Below are positions 28,283 to 40,289 of a stretch of DNA of 50,105 nt, one piece after another. This DNA comes from Candidatus Limicola stercorigallinarum (lineage in GTDB: Bacteria > Actinomycetota > Coriobacteriia > Coriobacteriales > Coriobacteriaceae): positions 1 to 50,105 of the forward strand of contig DVID01000030.1 in the NCBI GenBank assembly GCA_018711625.1, read 5' to 3'. How positions within the stretch are numbered: the first letter of the stretch is position 1; every line of letters starts with the position of its first letter. The notes under the pieces are model-generated. The model was not told the origin of the DNA, did no database searches, and worked only from the letters and a program-made list of their open reading frames with translations. Position numbers and translations under genes: made by a program.

Positions 28283-31030
28283 ATGAGACGTTTGGGGAAG
28301 GTGGCGCTTGCTGCCACGGCATTGGCGGTGGCGCTGGCTGCGCCCTGCCCTCTGTGGGCGCTCGAGGCTGCTGCGCCCGAGGGTGCGGCGCTCGAAGAGG
28401 CTGCGGTCACGGTTGATACAGGCGAGGTGTCCACCACTGATGAGGCGCCTGTAACGGACGACGCTACGCCCGCCGAAGCGCCCGCTGCTATCGAGGAGGC
28501 CCCCGTGGCGCTCGCCGCTACCGACGAGCAGCCGGCTCCGGGTCTGAGTGTTGAGGCGCATGTGGCCGATATCGGCTGGATGGCGCCGGTGGAGGGTGGT
28601 GCCACGGCTGGCACCACGGGACGCAATCTTTCTCTTGAAGCGCTGCGCGTTGCGCTTACCGGTATTGAGGATGGTTCTGCGGTAGAGCTGCGTGCCCATG
28701 TGTCCAACATCGGTTGGCAGGACTGGACGACCGACATGGCAGGCACTACGGGCAAGGCGCTTGGTATTGAGGCGCTCCAGCTGCGCCTGACGGGCCCTGC
28801 TTCAGAGCAGTACGACCTTTGGTACCGTGTGCATGTGGCCGACCTGGGCTGGCTTGGATGGACGTCCAACGGCCTGGAGGCGGGCACCACGGGACGCGCG
28901 CTTGCGTGCCAGGCCATCGAGGTTGTGCTTCTGCCCAAGGGGTCTGCAGCTCCGGGCGATGAGGCCGACAGCTTCTTGCCCAACCTGAAAGAGACTACCT
29001 TTGCGCAGGTAGGGGAGACCACCACCTTTACGGCAATGCCCGCGTGGTCTGAGCGCCTTACTGCTGCGGGCGCCGACACCATGCGTCTTGTGGCGACCGT
29101 GAGCTATCGCGGTGTTGAGACGCGCCGTGTTGAGACGTCGTGCGCCCTCTCGGAGCTTCCCGAGGGCGGCCTTTCGCTTGATGTTGGTGGCTATGGTCCC
29201 TGGAACGTTGAGGCGGCCTATCTTGATGGCGACAAAGTTGTTGCTGTTACGCACCAGGAGGTGGGCATCTCTGCCCGTGAGTACAACCTGGCTCCCCTGA
29301 GCGCCTCATTCCCTGTGGTGCTTTTCTCGCTTTCGTATTGGGATATCCAAACGGCGGCCGACGGCACAACCATTCCCACTGTTGTGATGCTCGACCGCCC
29401 CTCGGCGTACGACTGGGATGCGCTGCCTGAGGGCATGTATGCCATGCCCTTCCTGAAGCAGGACTCAACTCCCGATGTGAACGATTATCAGATTTTTGCC
29501 GACTACGTGGGTGAGCTTTATCGCTTGAATCCGCAGGCGCATTTCAACCTCTACATCAACGACATCACCTGCACCTACATCCACGAGATCATCTACGCCA
29601 ACGGCATCCCGGAAGGTTCGTACAAGATCACCATGCTGTCCGACGGTTCAGGTACCTACGGCATCACCAACGAAACGTTTGCTGTGGCCGACCCGCAGGC
29701 CAAGCAGAATGAGCTTGTTGCCCAGTGGAACGAGGCCAAGGCCTATGCCTATGCAACGGGTACGGTGGCCGTGGGCTATGGCTACCACGAGCATTGGGAC
29801 TCCATGTATGCTGTGCTTACGTGCGAGCCGGGTACTGAATGGTGGATGACCCGCACCAACCTCTTCACAAGTGGTGACAACAACGTGTTTGCCAACCAGA
29901 TCGCAACGAACCCTGGCGTGGTTGCTAAAAACGTGGCCACGATGCTCACCAATTTGCAGGCCAAGGGTGACGATGTGGTTGCTGAGCTTAAGGCCATGTA
30001 TAAGTTCAACGAGGGCTACTTTACTGATGCCGAGGAGTCGGGCAAGCAGGTCATGCTGCTGCTAGGCACCTATGTGAGCATGGAGGATGGCTTTGACGCA
30101 TACGCCGAGCTGACCTCGATGATCTATGGTGACACCTACGCTTACTACTACAAGGGCCATCCCAATACGCCCACGCGCCTGTACCCCGAGAAGCAAGAGC
30201 AACTCGACAATCTGGGTATCGTGGACATCGACTCTTCGGTGGCGGCCGAACTCATTTTGTTCTACAACCCGGAGGTGGCGGTTTCGGGCTACGGTTCGAG
30301 CACGTTCAACTCGGTGTCGGCGGATCAGGCGGGCGGCCTCTTTGGCATGACCAAGGCGCAGGCGCTCTCGGACGAAAGCACCATCGATTACAGCGGTATG
30401 GACTGGTTTGCCTCTCCGGTGACGGAGGAGACGGATGAGGCGCTGCAGGCGCTCTGCCCGGAGGGCCACGACTGCTATCTGGTTGAGTTCTCCGACGAGA
30501 TGCTGCGCGGCGAGCGCTATGACCTTGCCATTTACGATGCAAACGCCGGCTCCATGGCGCGTTACGAGCGCATACGCTCGGGCGAATACAAGCTCGTTGA
30601 CGAGGTGTACGCGCCGGCGGGCGTCACAGGCGAGGCGCATGTGAGCGACATTGGTTGGATGGATCCGGTGCTGACGGGCGCCACGGTGGGCACCACAGGC
30701 CAGGCTAAGTCGCTCGAGGCTGTCGAGCTTTCGCTTCGCGGCGTTCCCTGTGATGGCTCGATTCGCTACCAGGCGCATGTTTCTGAAATCGGCTGGCAGG
30801 ACTGGATGGCAGACGGAGAGCTTGCGGGCACCACGGGCAAGGCGCTTCCCATGGAGGCTATCCGTATTGAGCTTACCGGCGAGGCCGCCGAGCGCTACGA
30901 CGTGGTCTACCGCGCGCACGTGGCTGATCTGGGCTGGCTTGATTGGGTGCAAAATGGCGAGCTTGCGGGCACCACGGGCCAGGCACGCCACATGGAGGCG
31001 CTCCAGGTGAAGCTCGTTCCCAAGGCATAA
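28283..31030 (+). CDS. Secreted ChW-repeat protein with GT80-like sialyltransferase domain
   Basis: A 915-residue protein. Residues 1-27 are a Sec signal peptide (RRLGKVALAATALAVALAAP...). Residues 88-220 hold three ChW repeats (HVADIGWM, HVSNIGWQDW, HVADLGWLGW, each followed by AGTTG), and residues 785-915 hold a second matching triplet. Between them, residues about 343-700 resemble GT80 sialyltransferases such as Pasteurella PmST1: NLYIND...KITMLSDGSGTYG places Asp454 where the catalytic Asp of YDDGS lies. LLLGTYVSMEDG matches the TGTTTWEG segment, YYYKGHP gives His626 in the CMP-binding KGHP motif, and VAVSGYGSSTF matches the GVASSLYF serines. The family call is from motif order only. An extracellular CMP-sialate-dependent enzyme would be odd. 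A single gene with its own terminator. Confidence 0.75.
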   Translation: MRRLGKVALAATALAVALAAPCPLWALEAAAPEGAALEEAAVTVDTGEVSTTDEAPVTDDATPAEAPAAIEEAPVALAATDEQPAPGLSVEAHVADIGWMAPVEGGATAGTTGRNLSLEALRVALTGIEDGSAVELRAHVSNIGWQDWTTDMAGTTGKALGIEALQLRLTGPASEQYDLWYRVHVADLGWLGWTSNGLEAGTTGRALACQAIEVVLLPKGSAAPGDEADSFLPNLKETTFAQVGETTTFTAMPAWSERLTAAGADTMRLVATVSYRGVETRRVETSCALSELPEGGLSLDVGGYGPWNVEAAYLDGDKVVAVTHQEVGISAREYNLAPLSASFPVVLFSLSYWDIQTAADGTTIPTVVMLDRPSAYDWDALPEGMYAMPFLKQDSTPDVNDYQIFADYVGELYRLNPQAHFNLYINDITCTYIHEIIYANGIPEGSYKITMLSDGSGTYGITNETFAVADPQAKQNELVAQWNEAKAYAYATGTVAVGYGYHEHWDSMYAVLTCEPGTEWWMTRTNLFTSGDNNVFANQIATNPGVVAKNVATMLTNLQAKGDDVVAELKAMYKFNEGYFTDAEESGKQVMLLLGTYVSMEDGFDAYAELTSMIYGDTYAYYYKGHPNTPTRLYPEKQEQLDNLGIVDIDSSVAAELILFYNPEVAVSGYGSSTFNSVSADQAGGLFGMTKAQALSDESTIDYSGMDWFASPVTEETDEALQALCPEGHDCYLVEFSDEMLRGERYDLAIYDANAGSMARYERIRSGEYKLVDEVYAPAGVTGEAHVSDIGWMDPVLTGATVGTTGQAKSLEAVELSLRGVPCDGSIRYQAHVSEIGWQDWMADGELAGTTGKALPMEAIRIELTGEAAERYDVVYRAHVADLGWLDWVQNGELAGTTGQARHMEALQVKLVPKA

Positions 31031-31155: not shown

Positions 31156-31242
31156 GTGCAGGACGTGGTTCCATGGCATACTAGCTCTGTGTGGCGCGCC
31201 CATCCCGAGAATCGCAACCTGCGCTACCGAGGAGGAACCATC

Positions 31243-32787
31243 ATGCATCGTTGTGCTCCTGTACTTGCTGGCCTTGCGGCTGTACTTTTGTCTGCGGCCC
31301 CTCAGGTGACATTCGCGCAAACGGCATCGACGATTGAGGCTGTTCAGGTGGAGTCCGTAGTCTATGATCGGGCCGATTTCTATGAAGAAGCGCACGACGA
31401 GGCAGCTATTGATACGCTTGCGCTTACGCCGGTGTATATCTCGGATGAGATGAAATACTTCACCAAGTACGAGAGCAACGGTAACTACGACCAGGGCTTT
31501 TCGCGTGGTGATGGCTATAACGCCCTGGGCTACTACCAGTTTGATCGCCGCTACTCGCTCGTGGGTTTCATCTCAGACGTGTACGCGTATAACCCCCAGA
31601 AGTACGCGATGTTCGCGCCTGTCATCGCGCGCGGCGATGAGCTCTCGGATGGCTCCATCTCTATGTACGACGATGAGACGGAGTCGCTGACGGAGATTGC
31701 CCAGCTGGCAGAAGATGCCTGGCATGCGGCATATGCTGCCGATCCGGCTGAGTTCTCCGCTTTGCAGGACGCCTATGCCTACAACAACTACTACGCCATC
31801 ACTGAGCGGTGGCTGGCAACCGAGGCCGGTGGCAAGATTTCACTTGATGGTCGCGCCGACTGTGTGAAGGGCCTCATTTGGAGCATGACGAACCTGTTTG
31901 GCTCGGGCGGCGTGCGCTGGTTTATCACCGAGGCTGCGCTTACGAACGACATGACCGACCGCGAGATGGCCAACGCCCTCGTGGATGCCCTGGTAGGCAA
32001 CATTGCCGAGCGGTATCCCAATCAGCCCCAGTATCACACGGGCTGGATTAACCGGTATGAGCGCGAGCGTGCGGACTGCCTGGCCTATATTGCCGAGGAT
32101 GAGGCGGCTGCTGGTGACTCTTCCAACGATAACGGCAACCAGCCGAGCGAGCCCGATGCCCCGGAAACCCCGGAGACTCCGGACGATCCCGCGCAGGAGA
32201 GCAGCGTGCTCCAGCAGTTCAGCGACTACGAGGCAGGCGGCTGGTACGCATTGAGCCCCGATGACCTCACCTATGCCGTTGAGGAGCAGCTCATGAAAGG
32301 CCGCCAGGACGGTACGTTCGGCTTCACGGATTCCATCACACGCGCAGACGTTGTCGTGGTGCTGCATCGCATGGCGGGGGAGCCCGCTGCGTCCTCCACG
32401 CCCTTCTCTGACGTGGATTACAGCGCCTACTACGGCCTCGCTATTGCGTGGTGTCGCGCGGAGGGCATCATCAACGGCTATGCGGGTTCGAACACCTTTG
32501 GCCCCAACGATCCGGTGACGCGTGAGCAGCTTGCTTGCATGCTCTACTCCTTCGTGCGCAGTATCGCTCCTGTGGGCGGCGCCGGTGGTAGGGTAGAAGC
32601 TACACTCATGCCCGACTGGTCGAGCGTGAGCTCGTGGGCGCAGGACGCCGTAGCGTGGGCTGTGGATGCGGATGTTATCAGCGGTTCGGTGGCGAATGGC
32701 GAGAAGTATCTCGACCCCTTGGGCCAGGCCTCGCGCTGCCAGGTTGGCGTGATGGTGGCACGTTTGCATCGCGATATTCTTTCGTAG
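31243..32787 (+). CDS. SLH-anchored exported protein with possible lysozyme-like domain
   Basis: A 514-residue protein with a signal peptide (MHRCAPVLAGLAAVLLSAAPQVTFA). Residues about 60-285 are a domain I cannot assign with certainty: DEMKYFTKYESNGNYDQGF and GDGYNALGYYQFD recall the E-S-x-G-x-Y...ALGxYQF pattern of lysozyme-like and transglycosylase folds, so peptidoglycan cleavage is possible. A Pro/Glu/Asp-rich linker follows (about 290-320). Three SLH repeats then bind secondary wall polymer (LTYAVEEQLMKGRQDGTFG..., IAWCRAEGIINGYAG..., VAWAVDADVISG...). ATG at 31243 has GGAGGA upstream. Transcribed alone. Confidence 0.85.
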   Translation: MHRCAPVLAGLAAVLLSAAPQVTFAQTASTIEAVQVESVVYDRADFYEEAHDEAAIDTLALTPVYISDEMKYFTKYESNGNYDQGFSRGDGYNALGYYQFDRRYSLVGFISDVYAYNPQKYAMFAPVIARGDELSDGSISMYDDETESLTEIAQLAEDAWHAAYAADPAEFSALQDAYAYNNYYAITERWLATEAGGKISLDGRADCVKGLIWSMTNLFGSGGVRWFITEAALTNDMTDREMANALVDALVGNIAERYPNQPQYHTGWINRYERERADCLAYIAEDEAAAGDSSNDNGNQPSEPDAPETPETPDDPAQESSVLQQFSDYEAGGWYALSPDDLTYAVEEQLMKGRQDGTFGFTDSITRADVVVVLHRMAGEPAASSTPFSDVDYSAYYGLAIAWCRAEGIINGYAGSNTFGPNDPVTREQLACMLYSFVRSIAPVGGAGGRVEATLMPDWSSVSSWAQDAVAWAVDADVISGSVANGEKYLDPLGQASRCQVGVMVARLHRDILS

Positions 32788-36803: not shown

Positions 36804-38817
<2,014 letters not shown>

Positions 38818-38828
38818 AAGGGGTTCTC

Positions 38829-40289
38829 ATGGCGCTGGAATACGAAAAAGAACTCGGCGTGCAAACCACTGACATTCCTGGGCTTTTGGTGTTTGACCTG
38901 GCGGTTCACGGCGATGCGCGTGGCTGGTTCAAAGAAAACTGGCAGCGGGCGAAAATGTGTGCGCTCGGTCTGCCCGACTTTGGCCCCGTGCAGAACAACA
39001 TCAGCTTCAACGCCGAGCGTGGCGTAACGCGTGGCATACATGCCGAGCCGTGGGATAAGTACATCTCCATCGGCTGCGGCAGCGTGTTTGGCGCATGGGT
39101 AGACCTGCGCCCCGGCGACACCTTTGGCCGCGTGTTCACATGCGTGCTCGATCCTTCGCGCGCCATCTATGTGCCGCGCGGTGTGGGCAACGCCTTCCAG
39201 GCGCTTGAGGACGGTACGGTTTACACCTACCTCGTGAACGCGCACTGGTCGCCCGAGCTCAAGCGCACCTACACCTTCGTGAACCTGGCCGACCCCACCT
39301 TGGGCATTGAGTGGCCCATTCCGCTGGATGCCTGCGAACTCTCTGAGGCAGACAAACATCATCCGTATTTGGTCGATGCGCTTCCCATGGCACCGCGTCG
39401 TACGCTTGTGTGCGGTTGCAACGGCCAGCTGGGGCGTGCCGTGCGCGCGCTGGCCGAGGAGCGCGGCCTCGAGGGTTTCGATTACTGCGATATTGACACC
39501 TTTGACCTGGGCGATCCGGCAGCCTACGAGAGCATTGACTGGTCACTCTATGGCACGGTTATCAACTGTGGCGCGTACACGGCGGTTGACCGTGCGGAGA
39601 CACCCGAGGGACGCGCGGCATGCTGGCGCGCCAACGCCACGGGCCCCGCGCTTATGGCCCGCGTTTGCGCTGAGCACGGCATCACGCTTGCGCATGTGAG
39701 TTCTGACTATGTGTTTGACGGTGTGGCCGAGCTTCATAGTGAGGACGAGCCGCTTTCTCCCTTAGGCGTTTATGGTCAAACCAAGGCTGCCGGCGATCTG
39801 GCGGTGGCGGGTTGCCCGCGCCATTACATCTTGCGCTCAAGCTGGGTGATTGGCGACGGCCACAACTTCGTGAAGACCATGATGGGGCTTGCACGCCGCT
39901 GTGCCGACCCGGCTGACGCACTGGAGCACGTGACCGTGGTCGATGACCAGATTGGCTGCCTTACCTTTACGGATGAGATGGCGCGCGCCATTTTCCACCT
40001 GCTCGATACTCAGGCGCCCTATGGTGTGTACAACATGACGGGGTCGGGCGAGCCGGCAAGCTGGGCAGACATTGCGCGTCGCGTGTTCGAGCTTACCTGC
40101 GGCAACGGCGTGGCGGTTGTGCCGGTGAGCACCCAAGCATACTACGCCAACGCTGCGGGCCCGGTGGCGCCTCGCCCCACGCACTCTGCGCTCGACCTTT
40201 CCAAGCTTGCGGCGGCAGGGTTTAGCCCCGCACCGTGGGCCGAGGAGCTCGACCGCTACGTTGCGGCAGAGCTTTCCCTGCTCGCTTAG
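38829..40289 (+). CDS. rmlCD: RmlC-RmlD fusion: dTDP-4-dehydrorhamnose 3,5-epimerase / reductase
   Basis: A 486-residue two-domain enzyme doing the last two steps to dTDP-L-rhamnose. Residues 1-195 are the RmlC cupin: GDARGWFKENW, VQNNISFN, RGIHAEPWDKYI with the catalytic His, and YVPRGVGNAFQALEDGTVYTYLV. Residues about 198-486 are RmlD: the nucleotide-binding VCGCNGQLGRAVR, VINCGAYTAVDRAE, HVSSDYVFDG, and the YGQTKAAGD catalytic pair, with RSSWVIGDGHNFVKTM. Separate proteins are the rule; the fusion removes the need to release the intermediate. ATG at 38829 follows AGAAGGG, 11 bp after rmlB. Confidence 0.96.
   Translation: MALEYEKELGVQTTDIPGLLVFDLAVHGDARGWFKENWQRAKMCALGLPDFGPVQNNISFNAERGVTRGIHAEPWDKYISIGCGSVFGAWVDLRPGDTFGRVFTCVLDPSRAIYVPRGVGNAFQALEDGTVYTYLVNAHWSPELKRTYTFVNLADPTLGIEWPIPLDACELSEADKHHPYLVDALPMAPRRTLVCGCNGQLGRAVRALAEERGLEGFDYCDIDTFDLGDPAAYESIDWSLYGTVINCGAYTAVDRAETPEGRAACWRANATGPALMARVCAEHGITLAHVSSDYVFDGVAELHSEDEPLSPLGVYGQTKAAGDLAVAGCPRHYILRSSWVIGDGHNFVKTMMGLARRCADPADALEHVTVVDDQIGCLTFTDEMARAIFHLLDTQAPYGVYNMTGSGEPASWADIARRVFELTCGNGVAVVPVSTQAYYANAAGPVAPRPTHSALDLSKLAAAGFSPAPWAEELDRYVAAELSLLA

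What the first reader, a model, noticed from the sequence alone, without database searches (positions are those of the whole stretch)
28283..31030. Secreted protein with a GT80-like sialyltransferase domain between two ChW-repeat triplets
Motif order in the central region follows GT80 sialyltransferases as I remember PmST1: an N-x-Y-I-N-D/LSDGS segment with Asp454, a GT-x-x-x-x-E-D-G loop, KGHP with His626, then a GYGSS serine pair at the expected distance. The chain has a Sec signal peptide and three ChW repeats on each side of the domain, so it should be outside the cell or on the wall, where CMP-sialic acid is not expected. Either the donor is supplied extracellularly, the domain uses another donor, or it has become a binding domain. 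GT80 enzymes are best known from marine and Pasteurellaceae proteobacteria, so one in a gut actinobacterium with Gram-positive wall repeats would be a new arrangement.
Basis: partly seen in the sequence, partly recalled or inferred. Interest (0 to 1): 0.85.

Follow-up and report, generated by a model that had tools for sequence, protein, structure and literature searches.

The report
Wall-bound secreted GT80 sialyltransferase-fold protein
A gut actinobacterium exports, onto its own cell wall, a protein whose core has the fold and active-site residues of enzymes that move sialic acid, although its genome shows no way to make the activated sialic acid those enzymes need, so it probably works on sialic acid taken from the host.

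Summary
ORF 28283-31030 (+) encodes 915 aa: a Sec-type signal peptide, three ChW repeats, an Ig/FN3-like domain, a 420-aa GT-B domain and three more ChW repeats. An AlphaFold2 model of the core (pLDDT 88) matches solved GT80 sialyltransferases far better than anything else: the first 21 structures in both searches are GT80 (VIA Z 20-26; next Z 12). Profile comparison puts PmST1's Asp141, His311, Glu338 and Ser355/356 in register with Asp454, His626, Glu656 and Ser672/673. The first three are invariant in 19 relatives. About twenty relatives exist in Coriobacteriia. Every one with a readable N-terminus has a signal peptide, but the attached modules differ: ChW, choline-binding-type, ricin-B or none. 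The domain is therefore a mobile extracellular unit. The host genome has no detectable CMP-ulosonate synthetase, no clear NeuB and no GH33-type sialidase, but has a nan-type catabolic operon. Likely a CMP-dependent enzyme handling sialosides outside the cell, perhaps by the reverse/trans-sialylation that GT80 enzymes show; direction and substrate are inferred. Extracytoplasmic GT80 has some precedent: a Vibrio harveyi GT80 carries a lipobox. New variant of a known kind, not a new kind.

The parts
28283..31030 (+). Complete gene, 915 aa: signal peptide, 3 ChW, Ig/FN3-like, GT80-like GT-B, 3 ChW
28283..28360 (+). Sec-type signal peptide (about aa 1-26; cleavage site approximate)
   Evidence: Hydropathy and sequence; no dedicated predictor available
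28559..28663 (+). ChW repeat 1 (aa 93-127)
28697..28801 (+). ChW repeat 2 (from aa 139; end approximate)
28832..28936 (+). ChW repeat 3 (from aa 184; end approximate)
28970..29272 (+). Ig/FN3-like beta-sandwich domain (about aa 230-330)
   Evidence: AF2 model; VIA FN3-type matches Z 9-10 over about 90 residues
29273..30544 (+). GT80-like GT-B domain (about aa 331-754)
   Evidence: AF2 pLDDT 88.2; Foldseek and VIA top 21 all GT80
29642..29644 (+). Asp454, equivalent of catalytic base Asp141 of PmST1 (LSDGS, cf. YDDGS motif)
30158..30160 (+). His626, equivalent of His311 of PmST1 (YKGHP, cf. FKGHP motif)
30248..30250 (+). Glu656, equivalent of Glu338 of PmST1 (the residue that contacts the ribose hydroxyls in the related polysialyltransferase)
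30296..30301 (+). Ser672-Ser673, equivalent of Ser355/Ser356 of PmST1 (SS motif)
30638..30742 (+). ChW repeat 4 (from aa 786; end approximate)
30776..30880 (+). ChW repeat 5 (aa 832-866)
30917..31018 (+). ChW repeat 6 (from aa 879)

Best explanation
A secreted enzyme held on the bacterium's own wall by six ChW repeats, with a GT80-type CMP-sialic-acid transferase domain that still has its catalytic machinery. SHOWN by computation: fold, residue register, signal peptides throughout the family, purifying selection in the best-sampled relatives, and no detectable CMP-ulosonate synthetase in the host genome. INFERRED: it binds CMP or CMP-sialic acid and works on sialosides at the cell surface. With no own donor, it most likely uses sialic acid from host glycans, either by CMP-dependent reverse or trans-sialylation (sialoside + CMP gives CMP-sialic acid, which is then hydrolysed or passed to a new acceptor) or from CMP-sialic acid released by other cells. 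Freed sialic acid could feed the nan-type operon of the same genome. The acceptor could be the wall polysaccharide whose dTDP-rhamnose genes lie just downstream. The confidence given is for 'catalytically active extracytoplasmic CMP/sialic-acid enzyme'. For the reverse or trans direction in particular I would give about 0.25.
For: Fold. Register of the five catalytically important PmST1 residues (listed in PMC4202792) with D454, H626, E656, S672 and S673; conservation. Weak independent Pfam hits to GT80 (PF11477) and polysialyltransferase (PF07388). Signal peptide in every relative with a readable N-terminus. dN/dS 0.06-0.08 in three close g2 relatives (0.33 in a fourth, more distant pair). 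ChW repeats surface-anchor proteins in Lactococcus (PMC6700490), and in relatives the same repeats carry wall enzymes (YkuD, GH25, Amidase_3, NlpC/P60). No CTP_transf_3 protein in the own genome; the only CMP-ulosonate synthetase confirmed among carriers is a PseF. Nan-type operon (Opp-type ABC transporter, DapA/NanA-like, ROK kinase, NanE). GT80 sialidase and trans-sialidase activities come mainly from reverse sialylation (PMC10795189).
Against: No ligand, kinetic or expression data. CMP or CMP-sialic acid outside the cell is assumed. Identity to PmST1 is about 14%, and the equivalent of the acceptor-side residue His112 could not be assigned. Four carrier genomes lack NanE, and a same-genus non-carrier has it, so sialic acid use and this gene are only loosely linked.
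Confidence: 0.55

Rival explanations
1. A forward surface sialyltransferase that uses CMP-sialic acid supplied from outside (lysed host cells or neighbouring bacteria) to decorate the wall polysaccharide or host glycans.
For: Intact donor-site and base residues; a wall-polysaccharide gene cluster with dTDP-rhamnose genes is adjacent; ricin-B lectin modules in the f2 relatives could hold glycan acceptors.
Against: CMP-sialic acid is unstable and not known to be plentiful in gut contents (own knowledge); the genome has no detectable way to make it.
Confidence: 0.25
2. A binding domain: the GT-B fold has become a lectin or receptor for sialosides or nucleotides and no longer catalyses.
For: Location outside the cell without a known donor; modular joining to different adhesion modules.
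Against: The catalytic base Asp is invariant along with His and Glu in 19 relatives down to 32% identity, which binding alone would not need.
Confidence: 0.15
3. A GT-B enzyme with another donor, such as a CMP-linked ulosonate other than sialic acid (Kdo, pseudaminic or legionaminic acid) or another nucleotide sugar.
For: HP motifs also occur in beta-Kdo transferases (PMC5517516); one carrier (G153) has PseF and NeuB-type genes.
Against: The other carriers show no convincing CMP-ulosonate synthetase; GT80 structures stand far above polysialyltransferase in the fold search.
Confidence: 0.15
4. Chance motif resemblance in an unrelated wall protein.
For: Single-sequence searches of the PDB find nothing significant, and Pfam hits stay below cut-off.
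Against: Fold search and profile alignment against shuffles.
Confidence: 0.01

Closest known systems
GT80 sialyltransferases with an N-terminal beta-sandwich domain (Photobacterium sp. JT-ISH-224 2,6-ST, 2z4t; P. damselae 0160, 4r83)
   Same: GT-B domain preceded by a further N-terminal domain; motif positions as in GT80. Best VIA match, Z 26.3 on the core; 2z4t aligns over both domains. That the Photobacterium N-terminal domain is Ig-like is my own knowledge.
   Different: About 12% identity; ChW repeats and a Gram-positive wall setting; the best-known members are from marine Gammaproteobacteria.
PmST1 (Pasteurella multocida PM0188; 2ex0, 2ihz)
   Same: Asp141, His311, Glu338, Ser355 and Ser356 all retained; Z about 24, rmsd 3.5 A over 348 residues.
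   Different: 14% identity; no Ig-like or ChW modules in the solved chains; the equivalent of acceptor-side His112 could not be assigned here.
Vibrio harveyi plasmid pvh5 GT80 (WP_017817635.1)
   Same: GT80 by Pfam (104 bits), with a lipobox-type signal (ISGC), so probably also extracytoplasmic.
   Different: Lipoprotein in a Gram-negative bacterium; no wall-binding repeats.
ChW wall-enzyme clusters of Coriobacteriaceae
   Same: Same ChW targeting repeats; the gene sits among them in relatives L050-L052.
   Different: Those carry peptidoglycan enzymes, not a nucleotide-sugar transferase fold.

Membership tests
CAZy GT80 | GT-B fold closest to solved GT80 structures | tested here: met
   Top 21 structures all GT80 in Foldseek (E 1e-11 to 4e-9; next 3e-4) and VIA (Z 20-26; next 12.0).
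CAZy GT80 | YDDGS motif with catalytic Asp (Yamamoto 2008, cited in PMC2996176) | tested here: met
   LSDGS; the D-G pair is invariant in 19 relatives and aligns with Asp141. The first two letters differ (LS for YD).
CAZy GT80 | FKGHP motif | tested here: met
   YKGHP, KGHP invariant, aligned with KGHP of PmST1.
CAZy GT80 | SS motif and ribose-binding Glu | tested here: met
   Ser672-Ser673 and invariant Glu656. One Ser is replaced (Thr or Asn) in four of 19 relatives.
CAZy GT80 | Sequence score above the Pfam PF11477 gathering cut-off | tested here: not met
   11.5 bits in the own-genome search against a cut-off of 25; best member E 0.0046. So it is a distant relative outside the current model, not a core member.
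CAZy GT80 | Transfer of sialic acid from CMP-sialic acid | not testable with these tools
   Needs an enzyme assay.
GT38 bacterial polysialyltransferase | Pfam PF07388 cut-off and closest fold | tested here: not met
   18.5 bits against 23.3. The polysialyltransferase structure 5wc6 is at Z 11.9, far below GT80. PmST1 itself scores 18.3 bits with this model.
ChW (PF07538) wall-targeted proteins | ChW repeats above cut-off plus export signal | tested here: met
   Six repeats, 276 bits in all; signal-like N-terminus.

The most novel reading that the evidence does not exclude
A wall-anchored GT80 enzyme in gut actinobacteria that makes no donor of its own and acts as a CMP-dependent trans-sialidase or sialidase. 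It would take sialic acid from host glycans outside the cell to coat the bacterial wall or to feed the nan-type operon. It would be a nucleotide-sugar-type glycosyltransferase run in reverse as a surface enzyme, where a GH33 sialidase would normally serve.
Probability: 0.25. Interest if true: 0.85.

Novelty: new variant of a known kind. Interest (0 to 1): 0.66.

Why it matters
Nucleotide-sugar transferases are expected where nucleotide sugars are made. Here a whole family in gut Coriobacteriia is exported, joined to at least three kinds of wall- or glycan-binding modules, and sits in genomes without a detectable CMP-sialic acid pathway. If active, it would show either that CMP-sialic acid or CMP is usable outside gut bacteria, or that GT80 reverse chemistry has become a physiological way to handle host sialic acid. 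Either can be tested with one purified domain.

Tried and rejected
Single-sequence PDB searches and the profile against the PDB by HMMER found no significant relative; only fold search and HH profile alignment did. Plasmids and phages have no relatives of the window domain, nor do viral contigs. A phylum-wide draw of 396 genomes found carriers only in the own family. Other phyla could not be searched, so a wider spread is not excluded. Contamination rejected: the gene lies in a contig with SUF and wall-polysaccharide genes whose relatives sit at the same loci in related genomes. NeuB-like hits at 20-46 bits were not counted as NeuB: they match only the later part of the profile, as DAHP synthase-type relatives would (not checked further), against 286 bits for the clear NeuB of G153. 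Eight CTP_transf_3 hits were typed: one PseF, five GlmU and two MocA/MobA-like; the remaining, weaker ones were not typed. A global hhalign and MAFFT addition of PmST1 gave unreliable N-terminal alignment, so the acceptor-side residues (PmST1 His112 and others) are not assigned.

Full report
WHAT IS THERE. The ORF 28283-31030 (+) is intact and 915 aa long. It begins with a Sec-type signal peptide. Pfam finds six ChW repeats at 276 bits in total, in two triplets. Between the triplets lie an Ig/FN3-like domain (about aa 230-330) and a GT-B domain (about aa 331-754). Pfam gives the GT-B part only sub-threshold hits: PF07388 polysialyltransferase at E 0.0016, and in some relatives PF11477 (GT80, PM0188) at best E 0.0046. 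PmST1 itself hits PF07388 at the same weak level.

IS IT GT80. An AlphaFold2 model from 19 family members has pLDDT 88.2 and pTM 0.81. Foldseek against the PDB returns GT80 enzymes in ranks 1-21 (E 1e-11 to 4e-9), then NeuC at 3e-4. VIA-align gives the same 21-entry lead: Photobacterium 2z4t Z 26.3; PmST1 2iib Z 24.1, rmsd 3.5 A over 348 residues; the first non-GT80 is at Z 12.0 and polysialyltransferase 5wc6 at 11.9. A larger model with the preceding domain (pLDDT 89.9) also leads with GT80 and shows the FN3-like domain at Z 9-10. Photobacterium GT80s also have a domain before the GT-B part: the best match, 2z4t, aligns over the two domains together, though with a large rmsd.

ACTIVE SITE. 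hhalign of the family profile with PmST1 alone scores 32.2 (E 0.002). The best of 100 shuffles is 24.4 and the reversed sequence 17.5. With a Vibrio harveyi GT80 added to PmST1, E is 2.8e-5 and probability 74%. The alignment, made without motif guidance, pairs Asp141-Asp454, KGHP-KGHP (His311-His626), Glu338-Glu656 and Ser355/356-Ser672/673. These are the residues listed as important for catalysis in PM0188 (PMC4202792); Asp141 is the catalytic base, and His311 is proposed to stabilise the leaving CMP (PMC5517516). Asp454, His626 and Glu656 are invariant in all 19 relatives, in a family where only about 40 of 464 columns are invariant. One Ser of the pair varies in a few (Thr or Asn). The acceptor side could not be aligned with confidence.

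THE FAMILY. In a class-wide draw of 398 genomes, 22 matched; one of these is a doubtful fragment with internal stops. Presence is patchy: one of the two other same-genus genomes lacks it, and 11 of 67 family genomes have it. Every relative with a readable N-terminus has a signal peptide. The modules attached to the conserved Ig+GT80 core differ: ChW in Coriobacteriaceae and in two genomes of family f3, choline-binding-type repeats in L011 and L017, ricin-B lectin repeats in L014-L016 and L018-L020, and none in L021 and L022. The tree mixes host families (L011 and L012 of f3 group with g2 of f1; L018 of f3 groups with f2), which suggests transfer and module exchange; support is uneven. dN/dS is 0.06-0.08 in the closest g2 pairs and 0.33 in another pair. 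The gene is therefore under purifying selection, at least in g2.

SETTING. Upstream are SUF genes and an Rrf2 regulator. Downstream are a secreted SLH/muramidase-like protein, a GT2, a DUF2304, a flippase-like protein and dTDP-rhamnose genes (RmlB-like, RmlC-RmlD fusion) (the flippase call rests on similarity to L053). In relatives the gene lies next to other ChW proteins carrying YkuD, GH25, Amidase_3, glucosaminidase, NlpC/P60 or C39 domains. So ChW marks wall-targeted enzymes here, as it does in Lactococcus, where a ChW anchor displays proteins on the surface (PMC6700490).

DONOR PROBLEM. The own genome (95% complete) has no CTP_transf_3 match, so no NeuA, KdsB or PseF was found. Of the other carriers, only G153 has a strong hit, and that is PseF, next to a clear NeuB. 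Eight of the hits were typed; weaker ones were not. PF13088 sialidase is absent in all but two carriers, and absent in the own genome; other sialidase families were not searched. NanE is present in the own genome, next to an Opp-type ABC transporter, a DapA/NanA-like aldolase and a ROK kinase, which reads as a sialic acid catabolic operon (NanE is above its curated cut-off, the others are inferred from context). Four carriers lack NanE.

HOW IT MOST LIKELY WORKS. The protein is exported and held in the wall by ChW (shown by sequence, not by experiment). Its donor pocket and base are kept, so it probably binds CMP or CMP-sialic acid and catalyses. GT80 enzymes are known for sialidase and trans-sialidase side activities, due mainly to reverse sialylation (PMC10795189). 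In a genome without a donor pathway, that direction, or use of an external donor, is the simplest way for it to act. The direction, substrate and acceptor are inferences.

NOVELTY. Extracytoplasmic GT80 has precedent: the V. harveyi plasmid protein ends its signal in ISGC, a lipobox, and scores 104 bits with PF11477. A GT80 gene has been annotated in Bifidobacterium pseudocatenulatum (PMC4850155), and GT80 is counted in a gut metagenome study (PMC10948488). New here are the wall- and lectin-module architectures, the family-wide export, and the lack of a donor pathway. No paper found in the library describes this arrangement; most subscription papers are not in it. PmST1's sequence was recalled and then verified as identical over 387 residues to PDB 2ex0.

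Noticed in passing
31156-32787 (+): Secreted protein with a VgrG3-like C-terminal (muramidase-type) domain and three SLH repeats just downstream; related to the neighbouring region of L052.
   Followed up: partly
L050, L051, L052: Tandem clusters of large ChW proteins carrying YkuD, GH25, Amidase_3, glucosaminidase, NlpC/P60 and C39 domains flank the GT80-like gene in relatives: a wall-enzyme island.
   Followed up: partly
L070:4905-6116: Vibrio harveyi plasmid pvh5 carries a GT80 annotated only as hypothetical protein, with a lipobox signal, next to an outer membrane beta-barrel protein.
   Followed up: partly
L068 (G153:C3:52000-71000): PseF and NeuB-type genes side by side, so one carrier can probably make a CMP-linked pseudaminic-type sugar.
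   Followed up: partly
L024, L025 (G398:C2): A copy of the GT80-like domain split over two matches with in-frame stops: a decaying gene or an assembly error.
   Followed up: no
L075 (G000:C44:22000-40000): Nan-type operon with an Opp/nickel-family ABC transporter, DapA/NanA-like aldolase, ROK kinase and NanE; a candidate sialic acid importer of the peptide-transporter family.
   Followed up: partly
38739-40289 (+): Natural fusion of RmlC and RmlD (dTDP-rhamnose synthesis) in one ORF.
   Followed up: no
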